Part shown: in pieces, positions 54,379 through 63,259 of the stretch
Numbering within the stretch: position 1 is the stretch's first letter
Layout: every line of letters begins with the position of its first letter
Notes under the pieces: generated by a model
What the model was told of the DNA's origin: nothing
The model's database searches: none
What the model saw: only the letters and a program-made list of their open reading frames with translations
Assembly (NCBI GenBank): GCA_004214175.1
Contig: SGZH01000003.1
Location: forward strand, 1 to 63,277
Origin: Flavobacteriales bacterium
GTDB lineage: Bacteria > Bacteroidota > Bacteroidia > Flavobacteriales > Flavobacteriaceae
Direction: 5' to 3'
Length of the DNA: 63,277 nt
Position numbers and translations under genes: made by a program

Positions 54379-54717
54379 ATGGCAGATAAATCGTATTACG
54401 ATCCAAAAGATCTTAGAAAATTTGGAAAAATCACCGAATGGAGTGAAGAACTAGGTACAAAATTTTTTGATTATTACGGAAAAGTTTTTGAGGAAGGTGC
54501 CCTAAGTGCACGTGAAAAATCGTTAATCGCACTAGCCGTTTCGCATGTTGTTAAATGTCCTTATTGCATTGATGCCTATACCAAAGATGGATTACAAAGA
54601 GGGATTACAAAAGAAGAAATGATGGAGGCTATTCATGCAGGTGCGGCTATCGAAAGTGGAGCAACATTGGTACACGGCGTACAAATGATGAATAAATATA
54701 ATAAATTAAGTATGTAA
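54379..54717 (+). CDS. Carboxymuconolactone decarboxylase-family protein, arsenosugar cluster type
   Basis: A 112-residue all-helical protein of the CMD/AhpD family. The redox site is CPYC (Cys60, Cys63), with His56 four residues before it, the AhpD-type arrangement that can act on peroxides or disulfides. Proteins of this type beside arsS and arsM are named arsenosugar biosynthesis-associated peroxidase-like. It may reduce arsenic-thiol intermediates or regenerate thiols, but this is inference. It is the first gene of the eight-gene run; TATATTTA at 54342-54349 is a near-match -7 box. Confidence 0.88.
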   Translation: MADKSYYDPKDLRKFGKITEWSEELGTKFFDYYGKVFEEGALSAREKSLIALAVSHVVKCPYCIDAYTKDGLQRGITKEEMMEAIHAGAAIESGATLVHGVQMMNKYNKLSM

Positions 54718-54760
54718 GTTGGGTTGAATAAATTCGTCCAACGAAAGCATAGTAAAGAGT

Positions 54761-55816
54761 ATGCAAACAAAATCTTTAAAAAAACAGAAAAAAGAATTAG
54801 CTAATGCTAAAAGACAGTTAGAAATTTTATCTAACGGTATTTTTAACAATAACGAACTCCCAACCTTTGCCTCGAAAATTAAAGCTGTAGGTCAATTTCC
54901 GTTACGCCCTAAAAAATTAGAAATTCTCCAAATTAATTTAGGCTATATGTGCAATCAAGTTTGTGAGCATTGCCATGTAGATGCGGGACCAGATCGTAAA
55001 GAAATTATGACAAAAGAGACGCTGCAACAATGTTTGGAGGTTATTAAAAATACACGGGCTACCACACTGGACCTCACCGGTGGTGCTCCCGAGATGAACC
55101 CTCATTTTAGATGGTTTATAAAAGAAGCGTCAAAACTAGGGATTAAAGACTTCATCGTACGTAGCAACCTAACCATTATTAGAGCTAATAAAAAATATTA
55201 CGATTTACCTGATTTTTTTAAAAAATACCACATTCACGTGGTCAGTTCAATGCCTCATTGGACTCGTGGAAAAACAGATCAGCAGCGTGGTAAAGGTGTT
55301 TTTGATAAATCGATTAAAGCTTTACAAGAATTAAATTTAGTGGGTTATGGAATGCCAGGAAGTCCACTCAAATTAGATTTAGTTTACAACCCCAGTGGTG
55401 CTTTTTTACCCGGAAACCAAGACAGCATGGAAAAAGAATTTAAAAATGCTTTAATGGAAGATTTTGGAATTCAGTTTCATCAACTATTTGCAATTACCAA
55501 CCTGCCCATTGCTAGGTTTTTGGATTATTTAATTGCATCTGATAATTACGAAGATTATATGTACAGTCTGGTAGAAGCATTTAATGCCTCGACTCTAGAA
55601 AACGTAATGTGTACGAACACCCTATCGGTAAGTTGGGATGGCTATTTATACGATTGTGATTTTAACCAAATGTTAAAATTAAAAGTGGCCAGTAAGCTAA
55701 AGCATATTTCTGATTACAATGAAGAAGTTTTACAAAACCGAAATATAATTGTTTCACAACACTGTTACGGCTGTACGGCTGGAGCAGGAAGCAGCTGCCA
55801 AGGTACTGTTGCTTAA
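54761..55816 (+). CDS. arsS: Arsenosugar biosynthesis radical SAM protein ArsS
   Basis: A 351-residue radical SAM enzyme. The cluster-binding motif CNQVCEHC (Cys64, Cys68, Cys71) is followed by HVDAGPDR. In the known family ArsS joins a 5'-deoxyadenosyl group to dimethylarsenic, giving the precursor of oxo-arsenosugars. The C-terminus HCYGCTAGAGSSCQGTVA holds Cys335, Cys338 and Cys346. In some homologues a selenocysteine is found in this region; here it is Cys and there is no in-frame TGA. It lies 43 bases after the CMD gene and 15 before the rhodanese gene. Confidence 0.94.
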   Translation: MQTKSLKKQKKELANAKRQLEILSNGIFNNNELPTFASKIKAVGQFPLRPKKLEILQINLGYMCNQVCEHCHVDAGPDRKEIMTKETLQQCLEVIKNTRATTLDLTGGAPEMNPHFRWFIKEASKLGIKDFIVRSNLTIIRANKKYYDLPDFFKKYHIHVVSSMPHWTRGKTDQQRGKGVFDKSIKALQELNLVGYGMPGSPLKLDLVYNPSGAFLPGNQDSMEKEFKNALMEDFGIQFHQLFAITNLPIARFLDYLIASDNYEDYMYSLVEAFNASTLENVMCTNTLSVSWDGYLYDCDFNQMLKLKVASKLKHISDYNEEVLQNRNIIVSQHCYGCTAGAGSSCQGTVA

Positions 55817-55831
55817 TCTCAGCCTATTTAA

Positions 55832-56329
55832 ATGAAAAGAATCCTTTTAATAAGCCTCTTAATTTTATGGAAAGTCTCTTTGTATGGGCAAGAAACCCTC
55901 GAGGAGGTTTTAAATAAATACAACCATAAAAAGGTGCCATACATCGCTGTCGCAGAGCTTCAAAACTTACAGCAAAAAAATAATATAGTAATTTTAGATA
56001 GTAGAGATCTTGTTGAATTTAAAGTGAGTCATATTGAGGGAGCAATATTGGTGGGTTATGATCATTTTAAGCTAAGCTCCCTACCAGATAGCATAGATAA
56101 AAATAGTCCTATTGTTGTTTATTGCACGCTAGGAGTTCGCTCTGAAGTGATTGCCAACCAATTAATTGAAAATGGCTATACCGATGTTAAAAATTTATAT
56201 GGCGGCATTTGCGAATGGAAAAATAAAGACTATGTAGTGATCGATTCCATACAAAGAATGACCGAAAATATACATGTATATTCTAAAAAATGGGAAAAAT
56301 GGTTAACCAAAGGAAATCCTATTTTTTAA
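55832..56329 (+). CDS. Exported rhodanese-like protein
   Basis: A 165-residue protein with a signal peptide (about 1-19, ending in LYGQ) and one rhodanese domain. The active-site loop is CTLGVRS with Cys98, complete. DSRDLVEFKVSHIEGA is the family N-terminal motif. Rhodaneses carry persulfide sulfur, and the CDC25-related arsenate reductase Acr2p belongs to the same fold, but the loop here is the six-residue rhodanese type. Being in the arsenosugar run and exported, it may handle sulfur or arsenic in the periplasm. The link is inferred from position only. Confidence 0.88.
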   Translation: MKRILLISLLILWKVSLYGQETLEEVLNKYNHKKVPYIAVAELQNLQQKNNIVILDSRDLVEFKVSHIEGAILVGYDHFKLSSLPDSIDKNSPIVVYCTLGVRSEVIANQLIENGYTDVKNLYGGICEWKNKDYVVIDSIQRMTENIHVYSKKWEKWLTKGNPIF

Positions 56330-56332
56330 CCT

Positions 56333-56953
56333 ATGAAAAAGCTAAACACTCATAAAGCACTTATTATTTTTACCCGCAATCCTGAGTTGGGAAAGGTAAA
56401 AACTAGATTAGCCAAAAAAATAGGTGATTTAGCAGCGTTAAAAGTATATCAAAAATTACTGGAGCATACGATTCACATTACTCGAACTCTAGAAGTGGAT
56501 AAGTTTGTTTTTTATTCGGAGCAAATTCAAGAAAATGATCACTGGGATGCAGTTACCTATTTCAAAGAGCTTCAAAACGGTGTGGATTTAGGAGAACGAA
56601 TGAACCATGCTTTTGAGTTATTGTTTAGCCGAGGATATCGCCAAATTGTGATCGTTGGTAGTGATATTTTTGAATTAACTACCAACGATATTCAAGAAGC
56701 TTTTTCCCATTTAGATACCACAAATTTTGTAGTGGGGCCCGCTTTGGATGGAGGTTACTATTTATTGGGAATGAATGCCTTAAAAAAGAAACTTTTTAAA
56801 AATAAAAAATGGGGCACTAAAACGGTATTTAGAGAGACTCTAAAAAATTTAGAGCAAGAGCAAGTGGTTTTACTTGCCACCAAAAACGATATTGACACCT
56901 ATGATGACCTAAAAAAAAGTAGTGAATTCAATCAATTTTTGATAGCACCTTAA
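56333..56953 (+). CDS. TIGR04282-type (DUF2064) arsenosugar biosynthesis protein
   Basis: A 206-residue soluble protein. FTRNPELGKVKTRLAKKIG at residues 14-32 and FVVGPALDGGYYLLGM near 137 are marks of the DUF2064 family, usually called a glycosyltransferase in arsenosugar clusters. The N-terminal GKVKTRL pattern and the fold resemble nucleotidyltransferases such as CofC, so activating a sugar phosphate is an alternative to glycosyl transfer. It lies 3 bases after the rhodanese gene and 10 before the phosphorylase gene. Confidence 0.88.
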   Translation: MKKLNTHKALIIFTRNPELGKVKTRLAKKIGDLAALKVYQKLLEHTIHITRTLEVDKFVFYSEQIQENDHWDAVTYFKELQNGVDLGERMNHAFELLFSRGYRQIVIVGSDIFELTTNDIQEAFSHLDTTNFVVGPALDGGYYLLGMNALKKKLFKNKKWGTKTVFRETLKNLEQEQVVLLATKNDIDTYDDLKKSSEFNQFLIAP

Positions 56954-56963
56954 AATAAAAAAT

Positions 56964-57776
56964 ATGAAAAAATACATACAAGAAGCGGTAGATTATTTAA
57001 AAAATAAAGGATTTGATGCTCCTGAAATAGGAATTGTATTGGGGACAGGATTGGGTAAGTTAGTCGATGAAATAGAAAAAGAGAGTACCGCAAGTTATAA
57101 CCACATTCCGAATTTTCCGACCGCTACCGTAGAGTTTCATAAAGGAAAATTAATCTATGGAACCTTAGCTGGTAAAAAGGTAATTGTCATGCAAGGTAGA
57201 TTTCACCTATATGAAGGATATTCTACCTACGACGTGACCTTTCCAATACGCGTGATGCACCAATTAGGAATTAAAAAATTATTGGTGAGTAATGCATCCG
57301 GGGCAATTAATAAGAAATTTAAAAAAGGAGAACTGATGATCATTGATGATCATATTAATTTACAAGGAGGATCTCCTTTGGCCTATAAAGGAATTGAGTC
57401 GATGGGAAACCGTTTTGTAGATATGAGTCAGCCTTATGATGCCCAAATGAATAGAAAGCTGGCTGCTATTGCAAAATCCAACCGCATTAATATCCAAAAA
57501 GGAGTCTATGTGAGTGTGATGGGACCTCAACTAGAAACTAGAGCAGAATACCGATATTTAAAAATTTTAGGCGCAGATGCCGTAGGAATGAGTACAGTTC
57601 CAGAAATAATTGTCGCCAACCATTTAAAAGTACCGGTAGCTGCAGTTTCTGTTCTTACCGATGAATGTGATCCAGATCACCTTCAGCCTGTAGATATTAA
57701 TGATATTATTGAAATTGCTGGAAAGGCAGAACCCAAAATGATTTTATTATTTAAAGAACTAATTAAAGAATTATAA
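56964..57776 (+). CDS. Purine nucleoside phosphorylase (in arsenosugar cluster)
   Basis: A 270-residue class I (trimeric type) phosphorylase that splits purine nucleosides with phosphate. It has GIVLGTGLGKL at about residues 23-33, MQGRFHLYEGYS, VSNASGAINKKFKKG and MGPQLETRAEYRYLKILGADAVGMSTVPE, all complete. Within this gene set it may remove adenine from the adenosyl-arsenic product of ArsS, leaving an arseno-ribose 1-phosphate. General purine salvage is the alternative. It lies 3 bases before arsM. Confidence 0.94.
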   Translation: MKKYIQEAVDYLKNKGFDAPEIGIVLGTGLGKLVDEIEKESTASYNHIPNFPTATVEFHKGKLIYGTLAGKKVIVMQGRFHLYEGYSTYDVTFPIRVMHQLGIKKLLVSNASGAINKKFKKGELMIIDDHINLQGGSPLAYKGIESMGNRFVDMSQPYDAQMNRKLAAIAKSNRINIQKGVYVSVMGPQLETRAEYRYLKILGADAVGMSTVPEIIVANHLKVPVAAVSVLTDECDPDHLQPVDINDIIEIAGKAEPKMILLFKELIKEL

Positions 57777-57779
57777 ACG

Positions 57780-58748
57780 ATGAGTTATTTACAAACCACC
57801 CATGATGTATATAAAGAAGCAGCATTAACACCCGATATAGGTCTTTGCTGTACCACTAACCCTATTTGGGAACTTCCAGGCTTAAAAATTCCAAAAATAA
57901 TGCAGGAAATGAATTATGGCTGCGGTAGCACTGTCAATGCCAGGGATTTAACCAACCATCCAAAAACATTATATGTGGGTGTTGGAGGCGGCATGGAGCT
58001 ATTACAGTTTTCCTATTTTTCGAGACAAAAGGGAGGTGTTATAGGAATCGATGTGGTCGATGAAATGCTGGAAGCTTCACAGAAAAATTTTAAAGAAGCA
58101 GAAGTATTAAACCCTTGGTTTAAAAGTGAGTTTGTAGAATTAAAAAAAGGAGATGCCTTAAACCTACCGGTTGCAGATAACTCCATCGATGTTGCTGCCC
58201 AGAACTGTTTATTTAATATTTTTAAGGCAGAAGATTTAAAACGGGCGATCAAAGAAATGTACCGTGTTTTAAAACCACATGGAAGATTGGTGATGAGTGA
58301 TCCTACCTGTGAGCAGCTAATGAATGAGACTCTCAGAAATGATGAGCGACTAAGAGCATTGTGCTTAAGCGGCAGTTTGCCTATTAAAGACTATGTAAAA
58401 GCACTCACCGATGTTGGTTTTGGAACCATCGAAATAAGGGCCAGAAAACCCTATCGAATTTTAGATCCAAAAAATTACCCAACAGAAGAATTAATTTATA
58501 TCGAAAGCATTGAAATTGCCGCTATAAAGGATCCTGTTTTACCCGATGGCCCCTGTATTTTTACTGGTAAAGCAGCAATTTACTTTGGAAAAGACGATTT
58601 TTTTGACGATCAAAAAGGACATGTATTGGTTAAAAATCAACCACTTGCCATTTGTGATAAAACAGCTAGACAATTAAAGGATTTAAAAAGAAACGATATT
58701 TATATTTCTGAGTCTACCTATCATTACGATGGTGGAGGTTGTTGCTAA
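57780..58748 (+). CDS. arsM: Arsenite methyltransferase ArsM, arsenosugar type
   Basis: A 322-residue SAM-dependent methyltransferase. The SAM motif is VGVGGGMELLQF at about residues 66-77. Candidate arsenic-binding cysteines are Cys23-Cys24 (in GLCCTTNP), Cys48 (NYGCGST), Cys177 (DPTCEQL) and Cys195 (RALCLSG). The protein ends in GGGCC. In the family the enzyme methylates As(III) to dimethylarsenic, the substrate of ArsS, both present here. The N-terminal CCTTNPIWELP is typical of the arsenosugar subgroup rather than of detoxifying ArsM. Confidence 0.94.
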   Translation: MSYLQTTHDVYKEAALTPDIGLCCTTNPIWELPGLKIPKIMQEMNYGCGSTVNARDLTNHPKTLYVGVGGGMELLQFSYFSRQKGGVIGIDVVDEMLEASQKNFKEAEVLNPWFKSEFVELKKGDALNLPVADNSIDVAAQNCLFNIFKAEDLKRAIKEMYRVLKPHGRLVMSDPTCEQLMNETLRNDERLRALCLSGSLPIKDYVKALTDVGFGTIEIRARKPYRILDPKNYPTEELIYIESIEIAAIKDPVLPDGPCIFTGKAAIYFGKDDFFDDQKGHVLVKNQPLAICDKTARQLKDLKRNDIYISESTYHYDGGGCC

Positions 58749-58795
58749 ATTAACCTATTAAAAAAGCTGCAGCTGAATATTAATTGTATCAACTT

Positions 58796-59518
58796 ATGAA
58801 AAAAATAGTAGTTATTGTAGTCATGTTATTCCTTAGCAAAAATAATTTTGTAACGGAGGCGGCCCCTATTAACAACAATCTAAACCACAGTACCTGGAAT
58901 TTATTATTAAAAAAACACGTAAGTGACCAAGGAAAGGTAGATTATCTTGGATTTAAAAAAGACCTAACAGAGCTGAATGCTTACTTGGAGTGGCTATCCA
59001 ATTCCATACCCTTAGAGACCTGGTCAAAAGATCAAAAAATGGCTTTTTGGATCAATGCCTACAATGCATTAACGATTCAACTGATCGTAGATCGATATCC
59101 TATTTCTAGCATTAAGGATATTTTCAATCCATGGAATATCAAAGTCATTACCATTGCAAATAAATCGCTATCTTTAAATAATATTGAACATGATATATTA
59201 AGAAAAATGGGTGATCCCAGAATTCACTTTGGGATTGTCTGTGCTTCCATATCCTGTCCAAAATTACAAAATGAGGCGTTTAGCACTCAAAATATAAACC
59301 GCCTATTAAATAAGGCAAGTAAGGAGTTTTTAGCAGATACCACTAAAAATAACATTACTACAAATTCAGTTGAACTTTCAAAAATATTTAAATGGTTTGC
59401 AAAGGATTTTAAGCAAGAAGGAAGCCTGATTGATTTTTTAAATAGATATAGTGATATTACTATTGCTAGCGATTCAAAAATATCTTTTAAGGATTATAAT
59501 TGGGGATTAAATGATTAA
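58796..59518 (+). CDS. Exported DUF547 protein
   Basis: About 240 residues. I chose the ATG at 58796 (MKKIVVIVVMLF) over a TTG 12 bases upstream, as it starts a normal signal peptide. The mature part has the DUF547 pattern KMAFWINAYNALTIQLIVDRYP, and FGIVCASISCPKLQNEAF with two Cys. DUF547 lies in a papain/transglutaminase-like setting in some studies, but no function is proven. It is common in marine bacteria. Found in the arsenosugar run, overlapping the next gene by 8 bases, so it is likely co-translated. Confidence 0.88.
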   Translation: MKKIVVIVVMLFLSKNNFVTEAAPINNNLNHSTWNLLLKKHVSDQGKVDYLGFKKDLTELNAYLEWLSNSIPLETWSKDQKMAFWINAYNALTIQLIVDRYPISSIKDIFNPWNIKVITIANKSLSLNNIEHDILRKMGDPRIHFGIVCASISCPKLQNEAFSTQNINRLLNKASKEFLADTTKNNITTNSVELSKIFKWFAKDFKQEGSLIDFLNRYSDITIASDSKISFKDYNWGLND

Positions 59519-60218
59519 AATTTCGATTATTATCCCCATTTTAAATGAAGAGAAAAATATTATTTCTTTACTGGAATATCTGGAACAACATAGCAGTAAA
59601 AAAAATAGTTTCGAGCTACTCATTGTAGACGGAGGAAGTACCGATGGATCCATTAGCAAAATTGAAAACTATATTAAAAACCATCATCATATAGCATTAC
59701 TTCCTTCGGAGCGCGGTAGGGCCAAACAAATGAATCGAGGGAGACTTCAGGCTAATGGCGCTATTTTGTATTTTTTACACGCCGATAGTTATCCTCCCAA
59801 AAATTTTGATCAATACCTTATCGACGAAGTTAAAAAGGGAAACTTGGCAGGTTGTTTTAAAATGAAATTTAACCATCCGCATTGGTGGTTAAAACTTGCC
59901 TCTTGGTTTACTCAATTTAATTGGAGCATTTGCAGAGGCGGCGATCAAAGCCAATACATTACTGCTACTTTATTTGACGAGATTGGTGGCTTTAACGAGG
60001 ATTATATCATTTACGAGGATCAAATTTTAATTAAGGAGCTTTATAAAAGAAATCAATTTACAGTGATTCAAAAATGGATTTATACCTCAGCAAGATTGTA
60101 TGAACAAAAAGGTATTTGGACCTTACAATACCATTTTTGGGCTATTTATATAAAAAAATGGTTAGGAGCTGATGCAACTTCATTACATCGTTATTACTCG
60201 AGGCACATCGCTTCGTAA
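59511..60218 (+). CDS. TIGR04283-type arsenosugar biosynthesis glycosyltransferase
   Basis: A 235-residue GT-A (family 2-like) glycosyltransferase. ISIIIPILNEEKNI at the start, LLIVDGGSTDGS near residue 41, ERGRAKQMNRG (donor site), LHADSYPP (the DxD-like metal site) and GGFNEDYIIYEDQ near 155 are in order. It may pass the arseno-ribosyl group to glycerol or to a lipid headgroup, as required for an arsenosugar. No helix is seen, so it is soluble or loosely bound to the membrane. It is the last gene of the run; the facing gene ends 46 bases away with no clear terminator. Confidence 0.9.
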   Translation: MIKISIIIPILNEEKNIISLLEYLEQHSSKKNSFELLIVDGGSTDGSISKIENYIKNHHHIALLPSERGRAKQMNRGRLQANGAILYFLHADSYPPKNFDQYLIDEVKKGNLAGCFKMKFNHPHWWLKLASWFTQFNWSICRGGDQSQYITATLFDEIGGFNEDYIIYEDQILIKELYKRNQFTVIQKWIYTSARLYEQKGIWTLQYHFWAIYIKKWLGADATSLHRYYSRHIAS

Positions 60219-60264: not shown

Positions 60265-61539
60265 TTAATTTTCTAATAGTTCGAGGCTTGGAGAGAGATA
60301 ATTTAAGAGTGGTTCTTGAAATAATTGTTCGTTTAAGGATAAGAATTCTATATAAGCTTTATAAAGTTCGTGTTCAAACTTTAAAATTTCAATGTCTTTT
60401 TTATTTTGAAGAATTTTGAGATTTAATAGCAGTAATGGTGAAACTCCTTCCATTTTTTGGTAGGCCTTATAAATAGATGTAACACTACTATTTTCGTATT
60501 GTTTTTGTAATACCGTATAATTTACTTTGGAAGTTTCAAATTCATTTTTAGCAAATGATACTTTTAGTTGATGCTTTTTTAATGCATCGTTTAAACTGTT
60601 TTGTTTAATTGTTTTCTCAAAATAAAACTCACTTTTATCTTGTCTAGCAGCAGCAAAAAAAGGTAAGTTGATTGCCAAACCTATGGACAAATTATCTTCA
60701 AATAAATTTTCCGATTTTCCGATATATTTTGCCTGAACAAAATCCAATAATTGGTTCGATTTTGCAATGGAAAGACTCATTTCATTTTCCAGTGTATTTA
60801 TTTTTAATTTTTGAAGTGTCACAAATAAATACTCGTTTGAAATAGAGTCAGAAAAAGGAAAGTTTATAATTTGTTCTGGACTAATTAAATTAGAAGTTTC
60901 AATACTGACAGTGTTTAGAACTAAAACTTTTTTTAGATAGTCCTCTAAATCTTTCTTAATTTTACGAAGTTGTATAATCTTTAGGTTGATTGCTAATAAA
61001 TCTTCTTCAGATTCTATTACATCTTTAACTTCAAAATCTTCATGGAAAACTTGATGCCCCAATAAATCTAATTTATCTTTTAATTGTTGTTGTTTGATTG
61101 CATAAAGTATTGCTGTTTTTTTATTAAATATATAATCTAATGCAAGTAAGTACCTGTTTTTTAAAGATTCGTTGATTTTTATTTTGTTTTCTAGTCGGAC
61201 TTCTTGAATTTTATTAGCATAAATATTTTTTTGACTCGATATTTCTCTAAAATTATTAGGTTTTATTCGTACCGAAAATTCTTGAAAGGTTTCAATAAAA
61301 CGCCTAGTTTCCAATCTAAATTGAGTACTTTTTATTAAGGGAATATTATAATTTTTACTACTTAATAAGGTGATCGTAGTAGAATCTTGATCAACTAAAT
61401 TAGAATCAATTGTTGAACTTAAAAAACTGTTTAACGTTAACCTTTCTTGAGCTTGAATAAGCGTAGCTCCAAACAAAAGACCTAAAAATAATATAGCTTT
61501 TAATTTGACCTTTACTAGTTTAAAAAGAGGAATTATCAT
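60265..61539 (-). CDS. TolC-like outer-membrane efflux protein
   Basis: A 424-residue protein with a signal peptide (about 1-30, ending in LIQAQ) and long heptad-like helices, as in the TolC family, whose trimers form a channel through the outer membrane and periplasm. Conserved glycine or proline turns are few and the similarity to known efflux TolC is weak, so the family is judged mostly from helix pattern and context. It lies 12 bases after the HlyD-like gene. No RND or ABC pump is in the window. Confidence 0.75.
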   Translation of the reverse strand: MIIPLFKLVKVKLKAILFLGLLFGATLIQAQERLTLNSFLSSTIDSNLVDQDSTTITLLSSKNYNIPLIKSTQFRLETRRFIETFQEFSVRIKPNNFREISSQKNIYANKIQEVRLENKIKINESLKNRYLLALDYIFNKKTAILYAIKQQQLKDKLDLLGHQVFHEDFEVKDVIESEEDLLAINLKIIQLRKIKKDLEDYLKKVLVLNTVSIETSNLISPEQIINFPFSDSISNEYLFVTLQKLKINTLENEMSLSIAKSNQLLDFVQAKYIGKSENLFEDNLSIGLAINLPFFAAARQDKSEFYFEKTIKQNSLNDALKKHQLKVSFAKNEFETSKVNYTVLQKQYENSSVTSIYKAYQKMEGVSPLLLLNLKILQNKKDIEILKFEHELYKAYIEFLSLNEQLFQEPLLNYLSPSLELLEN

Positions 61540-61551
61540 ATCAAAAATCTA

Positions 61552-62565
61552 TTAGTAAACTAGATTTAAAATCACTTTTTCTTTTTGCAGAAAAGGATTG
61601 TCAGGTGGTATTTCTATAATGATTTCTCTACCAAAAGTTTTAAGCTCCTTTATTTTTCTGAGTCTTGGCGGAATTTCTACAATTCTGGAACCTAAGGTTT
61701 TTACGACTCCTTTATTTTGGATATCAGGTCTTGAACTAGAGTAAATGGCTATAGAATCATCAATGTTTATTTTTAAAATAAGTTCCTCGTGAATATACCC
61801 TACCACTAAGTTGGGGCTTTCTTCGTAAAAAGAGATCAGCGCTCCAAAGGAGGTTATTTTTTCTCCTTCTTTACAATGTACATTTCCAATTAATCCGTCT
61901 GCTGGAGCTACGATAAGCTCATCTCTTTTCCTTTTGATATAATACTCCAATTGGGCTTCTTGAGCTTTAATTTCAGAAAGAATGGGATTATTTTGGGCAA
62001 ATCGCTCACTCTTTAAATTATTAATTTGAGTGAAAATTATTTCCTGTGTTTGTTGTAATTCTAATTCTAATGAAGCTAATTTTATCTGGGTTGGATTGGT
62101 AATACCTTTGGATTCACTGACAACCAAATCTATACTTGTGATTTTTTTTGATAATTCTTTGTTGTTTTTTAGTTTGACTTTTAATTGGTCTATCTGTGAT
62201 TGAATTTTACTGGTTTGCTCTTTCAGTTCAATTTCGTATTGAAGGATTCTCCAGTCCAAATCAGATTTCCATAAATTATACTTGGTTTGTAGTTCTTCAA
62301 TTTTATATTCTACATCACTCGTTTTTATGGGTAGCGTTGCTGAAACCACATTTAATAGGGGCGTTCCTTTTTTAACCTTTTGGCCTACCGTAACAAATAT
62401 TTTTTCTACTTCAATGGCATTTTCCATGCTAATCTCTGTTTCTTTGTTATCAGCAAATCCATAAAATGTTACGGTGCTATCTGCTTTGAAAAAAAGTGAA
62501 TAAAGTAATAAAACACAGATTAGTATTGCAACCAGATAAATAAGGTTAAATTTTTTCATAATCAT
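61552..62565 (-). CDS. HlyD-like periplasmic adaptor (membrane fusion) protein
   Basis: A 337-residue protein with one N-terminal helix (about residues 7-25). A lipoyl-like half (VEKIFVTVGQKVKKGTPLL) comes next, then a long coiled-coil hairpin (about 85-220), the second lipoyl half (VAPADGLIGNVHCKEGEKI) and a beta-barrel domain. This is the layout of adaptors that link an inner-membrane transporter to a TolC channel. It overlaps the DUF4956 gene by 20 bases, which ties the two tightly. Either MIMKKF or MKKF could be the start. Confidence 0.85.
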   Translation of the reverse strand: MIMKKFNLIYLVAILICVLLLYSLFFKADSTVTFYGFADNKETEISMENAIEVEKIFVTVGQKVKKGTPLLNVVSATLPIKTSDVEYKIEELQTKYNLWKSDLDWRILQYEIELKEQTSKIQSQIDQLKVKLKNNKELSKKITSIDLVVSESKGITNPTQIKLASLELELQQTQEIIFTQINNLKSERFAQNNPILSEIKAQEAQLEYYIKRKRDELIVAPADGLIGNVHCKEGEKITSFGALISFYEESPNLVVGYIHEELILKINIDDSIAIYSSSRPDIQNKGVVKTLGSRIVEIPPRLRKIKELKTFGREIIIEIPPDNPFLQKEKVILNLVY

Positions 62566-63259
62566 CTTTGAAATTTATCCTCACATTAAATATTCCATCC
62601 ATTACAGCTAATTCATTAACTAATACTCGTGCTTTCTCTTTACTTTCTATTTTAATTTTAAAATCGAAGGAAACCATCTGAATTACAGTATCTCCACTTT
62701 TTTTATTATTGATAGCATACTTTGATAGGTTTACCTTTACACAGGTATTACTTAGATGATCTTCAATGATTTTACGCTTATTAGATGCTAATAAAATATC
62801 ATTGGGAATGTCAAACTGTAAACTTGCAATAACCGATGTTTTTTTACTTAAATCGGAATAATGTATTAACAATACCACCAAACAAAAGCCCAGTGTCCCA
62901 ATTACTGCAATCGTAATTCCATAAACTCCAGCAGCTATACCAACTGTAATAGAGGTAAACATAAATGCCATGTTTCTTGGGTTTCGAAGCGTAGTTCTAA
63001 ACCTAATAATGGCAAGTGCCCCCAACATACCAAGTCCCCTTGCTAGACTGTCACCAATTGCTTGCATTACTGTTGCTACTGGAATAGATATTAGTATTAG
63101 AGCTTGTATAAAATATTTTGGACTTTCTAATTCTCTGGAAGTCTTCTGATAAATCAAAGCAATTAAAGAGGACAAAACAAATGAAACTAATGCTATTACA
63201 ATTACATTGGTTAAACTAGATCCCTCTAAATTATTGGTCAAACTTGAAAAATCAAACAT
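62546..63259 (-). CDS. DUF4956 membrane protein
   Basis: A 237-residue protein with about four helices between residues 14 and 135 and a cytosolic C-terminal domain of about 100 residues with an alpha/beta pattern. The segment RGLGMLGALAIIRFRTTLRNP at 75-95 (charged residues next to the membrane) is the family's conserved mark. DUF4956 proteins are often found with VTC-type polyphosphate polymerase-like and CotH proteins; the function is not known. The region to the right is outside the window, so upstream genes of the set cannot be seen. It precedes the adaptor and the TolC-like gene. Confidence 0.85.
   Translation of the reverse strand: MFDFSSLTNNLEGSSLTNVIVIALVSFVLSSLIALIYQKTSRELESPKYFIQALILISIPVATVMQAIGDSLARGLGMLGALAIIRFRTTLRNPRNMAFMFTSITVGIAAGVYGITIAVIGTLGFCLVVLLIHYSDLSKKTSVIASLQFDIPNDILLASNKRKIIEDHLSNTCVKVNLSKYAINNKKSGDTVIQMVSFDFKIKIESKEKARVLVNELAVMDGIFNVRINFKDDYEKI

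What the first reader, a model, noticed from the sequence alone, without database searches (positions are those of the whole stretch)
54379..60218. Eight-gene arsenosugar biosynthesis cluster with a complete-looking core
ArsM and ArsS, which together make the adenosyl-dimethylarsenic precursor, are encoded with a CMD/AhpD-like protein, a rhodanese, TIGR04282- and TIGR04283-type proteins, a purine nucleoside phosphorylase and a DUF547 protein. All are on one strand, with gaps of 43 bases or less or overlaps. There is no arsR, arsC or arsenite pump beside it, which suggests synthesis of arsenic metabolites rather than simple resistance.
Basis: partly seen in the sequence, partly recalled or inferred. 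Interest (0 to 1): 0.75.

Follow-up and report, generated by a model that had tools for sequence, protein, structure and literature searches.

The report
Arsenosugar gene cluster with dedicated phosphorylase
This flavobacterium-like organism carries a compact, widely shared set of eight genes for building sugar-linked arsenic compounds, and one of them, labelled as an ordinary purine enzyme, looks reshaped to cut adenine off the arsenic-bearing intermediate, which would fill an unexplained step in how arsenosugars are made.

Summary
In detail: eight + strand genes (54379-60218), gaps of 3-43 bases and one 8-base overlap, five over the curated cut-offs of NCBIfam's arsenosugar models. The cluster is not rare: 28 of 67 named flavobacterial loci with at least 9 kb downstream of arsS hold all eight genes in this order, some with extra genes between. 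It is a new member of a known kind. Resistance genes are missing only locally: acr3 lies on another contig.

New is the inference about the 'purine nucleoside phosphorylase'. In 60 of 60 full-length copies from arsS loci the residue matching human His257, by the ribose 5' end, is Ile/Val; MTA phosphorylase has Val. In Flavobacteriaceae this form occurs in 37 of 37 arsS+ but 2 of 28 arsS- genomes. Three of six plasmid arsS loci, all proteobacterial, carry a true MTA phosphorylase. TIGR04282, named a glycosyltransferase, resembles nucleotidyltransferases. Proposed route: adenosyl-dimethylarsenic to arsenosugar-1-phosphate to NDP-arsenosugar to glycoside. Against: in the samples taken outside Flavobacteriaceae the enzyme is neither linked to arsS nor restricted to arsS+ genomes. 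No enzymology is shown.

The parts
54379..54717 (+). CMD/AhpD-like protein, TIGR04169 (arsenosugar biosynthesis-associated peroxidase-like)
   Evidence: present in 80 of 80 named loci
54761..55816 (+). ArsS, radical SAM enzyme TIGR04167; all-Cys form (CNQVCEHC motif; C-terminal CYGCTAGAGSSCQG)
   Evidence: DUF3641 C-terminal domain
55832..56329 (+). rhodanese-domain protein NF045521 with hydrophobic N-terminus (probably exported; inference from sequence)
56333..56953 (+). TIGR04282/DUF2064 protein; predicted nucleotidyltransferase (CofC-like fold), proposed to activate the arsenosugar-1-phosphate
56964..57776 (+). purine nucleoside phosphorylase homologue with altered 5' pocket (T28, L190, D233, I245 = human PNP S33, F200, N243, H257); proposed to phosphorolyse the adenosyl-dimethylarsenic intermediate
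57780..58748 (+). ArsM, arsenosugar-type arsenite methyltransferase NF038099
58784..59518 (+). DUF547 protein (PF04784) with hydrophobic N-terminus; recurrent in arsS clusters, function unknown
59511..60218 (+). TIGR04283 family 2 glycosyltransferase; proposed to transfer the arsenosugar to its aglycone
57696..57698 (+). codon for PNP Ile245, aligned with human PNP His257 (next to the 5' end of the ribose)
57660..57662 (+). codon for PNP Asp233, aligned with human PNP Asn243 (purine-base contact)

Best explanation
An arsenosugar biosynthesis operon in which the late steps follow a phosphorylase route. (1) ArsM dimethylates arsenite. (2) ArsS adds the 5'-deoxyadenosyl group of SAM, giving 5'-deoxy-5'-dimethylarsinoyl-adenosine (DDMAA) after oxidation. 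Steps 1-2 are established for the families, not shown here. (3) The PNP homologue, whose pocket has lost the 5'-side histidine, replaces adenine by phosphate, giving dimethylarsinoyl-ribose-1-phosphate (inferred). (4) TIGR04282, a CofC-like nucleotidyltransferase, turns the sugar-1-phosphate into an NDP-sugar (inferred). (5) TIGR04283, a family 2 (inverting) glycosyltransferase, moves the arsenosugar onto glycerol or a lipid-linked acceptor (inferred). The stereochemistry closes: beta-nucleoside to alpha-1-phosphate to NDP-alpha-sugar to beta-riboside. CMD, rhodanese and DUF547 are taken as redox/thiol or envelope accessories of unknown role.
For: Family assignments over cut-off. PNP residues: 60 of 60 full-length copies from arsS loci have Ile/Val for human His257, Leu for Phe200 and Asp for Asn243. 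The 17 PNPs found that keep His257 all keep Phe200; 14 of them come from genomes without arsS over the cut-off and 3 are second copies in arsS+ genomes. Human MTA phosphorylase aligns Thr and Val at positions 33 and 257. Co-occurrence in Flavobacteriaceae at least 90% complete: His-less PNP in 37 of 37 arsS+ and 2 of 28 arsS- genomes; within the best-sampled genus 3 of 3 against 0 of 22. PNP is the next marker gene after TIGR04282 in 51 of 51 loci that hold both, among the 67. Parallel, in three of six plasmid arsS loci: Burkholderia glumae has an MTAP gene in one run with TIGR04283 and TIGR04282, Cupriavidus sp. KK10 has TIGR04283-TIGR04282-MTAP-DUF547 downstream of arsS, Acinetobacter portensis has mtnP beside the cluster; all three proteins pass the MTAP cut-off, Cupriavidus narrowly (276.7 vs 274.85). 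TIGR04282 fold: after 3cgx the best of the 50 matches shown are Rv2983, 3-phosphoglycerate guanylyltransferase and MM2497, then IspD, GlmU, KdsB. At least one known arsenosugar is a beta-ribofuranoside (compound name in the title of PMC6656958, listing).
Against: Outside Flavobacteriaceae 20 of 20 sampled PNPs are His-less whether the genome is arsS+ (9) or arsS- (11) (taken from the best-scoring copies, so the sample cannot tell how common the type is), and 0 of 40 arsS loci from other Bacteroidota have a PNP/MTAP in the fetched 13-17.5 kb, so the enzyme has an older, non-arsenic role. Two arsS- Flavobacteriaceae keep it (G019, G430), and 15 of 67 named loci lack it near arsS. Three of the six plasmid loci show no MTAP within reach (Thiodictyon, Hymenobacter, Pseudanabaena). 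In some near relatives the cluster PNP is the only PNP seen (no DeoD over cut-off, e.g. G007). Leu at 200 is not an MTAP trait: human MTAP aligns Phe there. Asp243 does not discriminate, as the His-class PNPs have it too; the published adenosine-cleaving human mutant carried Glu201Gln as well (PMC2799393 passages), whereas the window keeps Glu. Molecular dynamics of human PNP did not see a persistent 5'-OH to His257 bond (PMC4308819 passages). 3cgx is titled a putative nucleotide-diphospho-sugar transferase and a glycosyltransferase (mannosylglycerate synthase) ranks 44th, so the fold does not exclude transfer activity. CofC-like enzymes act on phosphorylated hydroxy acids, not necessarily sugar-1-phosphates.
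Confidence: 0.55

Rival explanations
1. The PNP homologue is a general 5'-deoxy-nucleoside salvage enzyme (for methylthioadenosine or 5'-deoxyadenosine, e.g. from uncoupled ArsS turnover) that sits in the operon for co-expression; the arsenosugar is released from adenosine by another enzyme.
For: The same residue pattern occurs in sampled PNPs of other Bacteroidota regardless of arsS and in solved PNPs such as 4lna and 4m1e (alignments). Canonical MTA/SAH nucleosidase is over its cut-off in only 7 of 59 genomes (own included), so an MTA-cleaving enzyme could be useful. A six-row subclade of the flavobacterial gene is unlinked from arsS or in arsS- genomes (coordinates).
Against: Flavobacteriaceae without arsS mostly lack both this PNP (26 of 28) and the nucleosidase over its cut-off (25 of 26; 11 of these 25 have weaker, sub-cut-off matches that could be divergent nucleosidases). 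So MTA salvage does not readily explain the distribution. Three proteobacterial arsS loci have an MTAP of a different family beside or near TIGR04282/TIGR04283.
Confidence: 0.27
2. The phosphorylase step is right but TIGR04282 activates the aglycone side (phosphoglycerate or a related hydroxy-acid phosphate), and the arsenosugar-1-phosphate itself is the sugar donor or is activated elsewhere.
For: Among the closest folds are Rv2983 (FbiD by recall), MM2497 (CofC by recall) and 3-phosphoglycerate guanylyltransferase, which act on phosphorylated hydroxy acids.
Against: Sugar-1-phosphate nucleotidyltransferases such as GlmU are also among the matches, TIGR04282 is not over the CofC cut-off (39.7 vs 105), and family 2 glycosyltransferases use nucleotide- or lipid-linked donors (established knowledge).
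Confidence: 0.1
3. The cluster makes a different organoarsenical (for example an arsenolipid or an exported conjugate), or mainly serves detoxification, and 'arsenosugar' is only the inherited family name.
For: Two proteins have hydrophobic N-termini; relatives add fatty-acid hydroxylase, phosphate transporter and SusC/SusD genes; none of the paper passages I saw reports a product from a Bacteroidota cluster.
Against: ArsS and arsenosugar-type ArsM are both far over their cut-offs, and an acr3 pump already exists in the same genome.
Confidence: 0.08

Closest known systems
ArsM/ArsS arsenosugar pathway (cyanobacteria; ArsS enzymology by Cheng et al. 2021, seen only as a citation in PMC12159101 passages)
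   Same: Same two carbon-arsenic bond-forming families, named by NCBIfam as arsenosugar biosynthesis.
   Different: Here six more genes form one compact run with a phosphorylase; the Pseudanabaena plasmid locus has arsM and arsS with TVP38 and mercuric-reductase genes instead.
Methylthioadenosine phosphorylase (MTAP/MtnP)
   Same: Hydrophobic residue in place of the 5'-side histidine, Thr at position 33 and Asp at the base; true MTAPs lie in or beside three proteobacterial arsS loci.
   Different: Sequence belongs to the trimeric PNP family; MTAP model score is 99.6 against a cut-off of 274.85; Glu201 and Leu200 differ from human MTAP's Ser and Phe.
Trimeric purine nucleoside phosphorylase (human PNP, TIGR01700/NF006054)
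   Same: Over both cut-offs; His86, Tyr88, Glu201 and Met219 positions kept.
   Different: His257 to Ile, Phe200 to Leu, Ser33 to Thr, Asn243 to Asp.
CofC / FbiD / 3-phosphoglycerate guanylyltransferase
   Same: Fold of TIGR04282.
   Different: Below the CofC cut-off; substrate unknown.

Membership tests
Arsenosugar biosynthesis cluster (NCBIfam) | ArsS over TIGR04167 cut-off | tested here: met
   436.7 vs 300 bits
Arsenosugar biosynthesis cluster (NCBIfam) | arsenosugar-type ArsM over NF038099 cut-off | tested here: met
   562.9 vs 400 bits
Arsenosugar biosynthesis cluster (NCBIfam) | associated TIGR04169, TIGR04282 and TIGR04283 proteins | tested here: met
   all over cut-off
Arsenosugar biosynthesis cluster (NCBIfam) | an arsenosugar is produced | not testable with these tools
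   needs culture and HPLC-ICP-MS
Trimeric PNP (TIGR01700) | score over curated cut-off | tested here: met
   300.1 vs 293.35 bits
Trimeric PNP (6-oxopurine ribonucleoside enzymes) | histidine at human position 257, beside the 5' end of the ribose | tested here: not met
   Ile245 in the window; Ile/Val in 60 of 60 arsS-locus copies
MTAP (TIGR01694) | score over curated cut-off | tested here: not met
   99.6 vs 274.85 bits: may work like, is not a member
CofC guanylyltransferase (TIGR03552), for the TIGR04282 protein | score over curated cut-off | tested here: not met
   39.7 vs 105 bits
Nucleotidyltransferase fold, for the TIGR04282 protein | structural match to characterised nucleotidyltransferases | tested here: met
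   model pLDDT 93.2; Rv2983, 3PG guanylyltransferase, IspD, GlmU and KdsB among the 50 matches shown of 374 at E<=0.001; a glycosyltransferase also ranks 44th
Arsenic resistance (ars) operon | arsR/arsC/pump in the same operon | tested here: not met
   none among the eight genes and 12 nearby proteins; acr3 lies on contig C35, beside an ORF far below the arsenate reductase cut-offs

The most novel reading that the evidence does not exclude
Arsenosugar biosynthesis runs through a phosphorylase: an MTAP-like enzyme (a reshaped PNP in Flavobacteriaceae, a true MTAP in Proteobacteria) converts the adenosyl-dimethylarsenic product of ArsS to arsenosugar-1-phosphate, which TIGR04282 activates and TIGR04283 transfers. 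This would supply the unassigned steps between DDMAA and the arsenosugars, by convergent recruitment of two different phosphorylases.
Probability: 0.5. Interest if true: 0.72.

Novelty: new member of a known kind. Interest (0 to 1): 0.5.

Why it matters
Seaweeds hold large amounts of organic arsenic, mostly arsenosugars and arsenolipids (abstract of PMC6656958 as shown in the listing). The two steps that put carbon on arsenic are known; how adenine is removed and how the sugar is joined to glycerol or lipid has, to my knowledge (recalled), no assigned enzyme. Three searches of an open-access library found no paper joining arsenosugar and arsM with PNP, arsenosugar with methylthioadenosine phosphorylase, or 'arsenosugar biosynthesis' with Flavobacteria; most subscription papers are not held. 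The prediction is cheap to test: one purified enzyme, synthetic DDMAA and phosphate. It would also make many flavobacteria candidate arsenosugar makers: arsS is over the cut-off in 30 of 59 genomes of the near sample (own included) and 151 of 392 of the phylum sample.

Tried and rejected
DUF547: a confident model (mean pLDDT 89.7) gave no Foldseek match to a solved structure at E<=0.001, and VIA-align 2 on Foldseek's own list gave nothing above Z 4.2; no profile match to a solved chain at E<=1. No fold or function is assigned, and a new fold is not claimed.

Simple resistance operon: rejected, because no reductase, regulator or pump was seen in or near the cluster and acr3 exists elsewhere. 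I first read the ORF beside acr3 as arsC; the models support this only weakly, so it is called reductase-like at most. ArsR was not searched genome-wide.

Promoter and terminator scans were uninformative: sigma-70-like sites were fewer than in shuffles (20 against a mean of 28.6), and the Bacteroidota motif occurred at chance level (6 matches, 31 of 100 shuffles reach that). ArsS has no solved homologue at E<=1e-5 by phmmer. Phage records hold no arsS at E<=1e-30.

Asp243 as evidence for adenine was downgraded because the His-class PNPs share it. MTA/SAH nucleosidase and DeoD were searched as controls; results against my reading are given.

Rows dropped or counted twice: 157 PNP hits gave 138 rows over 230 aa (19 partial rows dropped); the 20 rows were added; one search counts these 158 rows, 154 of them distinct, because a few genes were fetched twice. 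The tree uses 80 of these rows plus two human proteins. One search uses only genomes of family f1 listed as at least 90% complete; f1 is taken as Flavobacteriaceae because the PNP of a same-genus genome is identical to that of a record titled Flavobacteriaceae (L045 and G012). PNP class was read from residues for all but one of the 37 arsS+ genomes; G020 was judged by identity (63%, against 46-51% for the His class). In the by-genus test genus g38 counts on both sides.
Full report
WHAT IS THERE. Eight + strand ORFs run from 54379 to 60218 with spacings of 43, 15, 3, 10, 3, 35 and -8 bases. NCBIfam places five of them over curated cut-offs of models named for arsenosugar biosynthesis: TIGR04169, ArsS TIGR04167, TIGR04282, ArsM NF038099 and TIGR04283. 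The rhodanese is over NF045521 and the fifth gene over trimeric PNP models. The seventh is DUF547. Upstream lie a divergent pseudouridine synthase and a tRNA-Phe; downstream genes on the other strand are an ORF without Pfam match, a weakly HlyD-like protein and a DUF4956 protein. The genome is an incomplete 1.33 Mb assembly (69.6% complete) of a Flavobacteriaceae-type organism: the nearest named arsS found is from a Flavobacteriaceae metagenome bin, 86% identical.

HOW COMMON IT IS. ArsS over the cut-off occurs in 30 of 59 genomes of the near sample, own included, and 151 of 392 of the phylum sample. Among 80 named loci, 67 had at least 9 kb downstream of arsS; 28 of these hold all eight genes in the window's order, 52 hold the PNP, and in 51 of 51 with both, PNP is the next marker after TIGR04282. 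Fifteen have only CMD-arsS, with or without arsM, nearby. Over all 80, 29 are complete, spanning 5.8 to 11.6 kb. The window, at 5.8 kb, is a compact example of a widespread cluster. Resistance genes are absent beside it but acr3 is at C35:7425-8414 (436.6 vs 282.8 bits), next to an ORF that only weakly resembles thioredoxin-type arsenate reductase (36.8 vs 215 bits).

THE PHOSPHORYLASE. Aligned to human PNP, the window protein has Thr28, Leu190, Asp233 and Ile245 at human Ser33, Phe200, Asn243 and His257. Human MTAP aligns Thr, Phe, Asp and Val at those four places. Over 158 PNP rows (154 distinct), 141 lack His257 (118 Ile, 14 Val, 9 Leu) and 139 of these have Leu for Phe200; 17 rows keep His257 and all 17 keep Phe200. 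All 60 rows from arsS loci lack the histidine (58 Ile, 2 Val) and have Leu200 and Asp243. In a tree of 82 rows the 17 His rows group with human PNP (98/90 support), and 32 flavobacterial cluster-type rows form a supported clade (99/91) (the human rows are long branches). Papers, read in passages only: human PNP's Asn243 holds the purine ring, while the 5'-OH to His257 bond was not persistent in simulation (PMC4308819); His257, Phe200 and Phe159 line one pocket (PMC10226123); a Glu201Gln/Asn243Asp human mutant cleaves adenosine-type substrates that wild type does not (PMC2799393).

CO-OCCURRENCE. In Flavobacteriaceae genomes at least 90% complete, the His-less PNP is in 37 of 37 arsS+ and 2 of 28 arsS- genomes (Fisher p about 4e-16, not corrected for ancestry); in the best-sampled genus, 3 of 3 against 0 of 22; by genus, 25 of 25 against 2 of 7. 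MTA/SAH nucleosidase is over its cut-off in 1 of 45 Flavobacteriaceae, so most arsS- members have neither enzyme at these cut-offs, which speaks against MTA salvage as the reason for the pattern; but 11 of the 26 arsS- genomes have weaker matches that could be divergent nucleosidases. Against exclusivity: 20 of 20 PNPs taken from the best-scoring copies in other Bacteroidota are His-less whether the genome is arsS+ (9) or arsS- (11); 0 of 40 arsS neighbourhoods from other Bacteroidota contain PNP or MTAP; a six-row flavobacterial subclade is unlinked from arsS or lies in arsS- genomes; and some relatives lack DeoD over its cut-off, leaving the cluster PNP as the only PNP seen (for example G007). 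The simplest history is an older 5'-deoxynucleoside phosphorylase recruited into the operon in Flavobacteriaceae (inference).

PARALLEL RECRUITMENT. Of six plasmid arsS loci examined, three carry MTAP: Burkholderia glumae BGR1, where MTAP, TIGR04283 and TIGR04282 run in one direction about 6 kb from arsS (46 of the 51 arsS plasmid records are Burkholderia); Cupriavidus sp. KK10, TIGR04283-TIGR04282-MTAP-DUF547 downstream of arsS; and Acinetobacter portensis, mtnP convergent with the phosphate transporter gene that ends the cluster. All three proteins pass the MTAP cut-off (312.1, 276.7 and 314.8 vs 274.85). The Thiodictyon, Hymenobacter and Pseudanabaena loci show none in about 17 kb each. This is a small sample of what the plasmid collection offered.

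TIGR04282 AND TIGR04283. The TIGR04282 model (pLDDT 93.2) matches 3cgx (titled a putative nucleotide-diphospho-sugar transferase), then Rv2983, 3-phosphoglycerate guanylyltransferase, MM2497, IspD, GlmU and KdsB; a glycosyltransferase first appears at rank 44 of the 50 shown. The database name 'glycosyltransferase' is therefore doubtful and nucleotidyltransferase is the better guess. G20, K23-L26, Q81, L86-G87, G109, D111 and D139-G141 are invariant in the 32 proteins aligned. TIGR04283 is a family 2 glycosyltransferase.

PROPOSED PATHWAY. Arsenite to dimethylarsenic (ArsM), to the 5'-deoxyadenosyl product (ArsS), to arsenosugar-1-phosphate plus adenine (PNP), to NDP-arsenosugar (TIGR04282), to beta-riboside (TIGR04283). 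The first two steps are established for the families (PMC12159101 passages, cite adenosylation of arsenic by a radical SAM enzyme); the last three are inferred. Stereochemistry is consistent with general knowledge of PNPs and family 2 glycosyltransferases, both inverting (recalled).

EXTENDED VERSIONS IN RELATIVES. Among 126 arsS loci (80 named, 46 from other genomes and plasmids; many shorter than 10 kb on a side), same-strand genes starting within 10 kb of arsS include a fatty acid hydroxylase (22 loci), a PHO4-type phosphate transporter (9), PstS (2), and SusC (12, one weak), SusD (11), sodium/solute symporter (11) and metallophosphoesterase (11) (family names on one or two examples each). 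These are not in the window's cluster. They suggest that arsenate or phosphate uptake, or uptake of an organic substrate, is tied to the pathway in some lineages (inference).

VERDICT. The cluster is real, correctly described and of a known kind. The specific, testable addition is a phosphorylase route for the unassigned late steps, with good comparative support in one family and independent support from three plasmid loci, but no biochemical proof.

Noticed in passing
L042 11089-18771; also L043, L056, L077, L089, L103, L048, L064, L069, L072, L275: arsS loci of relatives carry a SusC/SusD pair, mostly with a sodium/solute symporter and a metallophosphoesterase, after arsS or before CMD-arsS, often with a shortened second DUF2064 gene; this looks like an uptake system tied to arsenosugar metabolism.
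   Followed up: partly
L048 8743-9945: Metallophosphoesterase and the TIGR04169 CMD protein lie in one 401-aa ORF in Maribacter sp. PR1, a domain-fusion hint of linked function.
   Followed up: partly
L035 14058-14936 and 19 other named flavobacterial loci; L253, L288: A fatty acid hydroxylase (PF04116, scanned for L035) recurs near arsS, often between arsM and DUF547; similar genes lie by arsS in Thiodictyon and Acinetobacter. Possibly linked to arsenolipids.
   Followed up: partly
L084 14168-15283; L047, L049, L050, L051, L071, L076, L251, L252; Pst genes in L060 14140-16665: Phosphate transporters (PHO4 type, once PstSCA) lie inside or beside arsS clusters in two phyla, suggesting a link to arsenate entry or phosphate supply.
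   Followed up: partly
window 58784-59518: DUF547 recurs in arsS loci of Bacteroidota and Proteobacteria; its confident model found no clear solved structural relative.
   Followed up: partly
L254 (NC_012718.1); 46 Burkholderia glumae plasmid records: Burkholderia glumae plasmids carry arsS; in strain BGR1 it lies with MTAP, TIGR04283, TIGR04282, DUF547 and a second radical SAM gene, near transposases.
   Followed up: no
   Followed up: no
window 60265-63259: Trio on the other strand beside the cluster: an ORF without a Pfam hit, a weakly HlyD-like protein and DUF4956.
   Followed up: no
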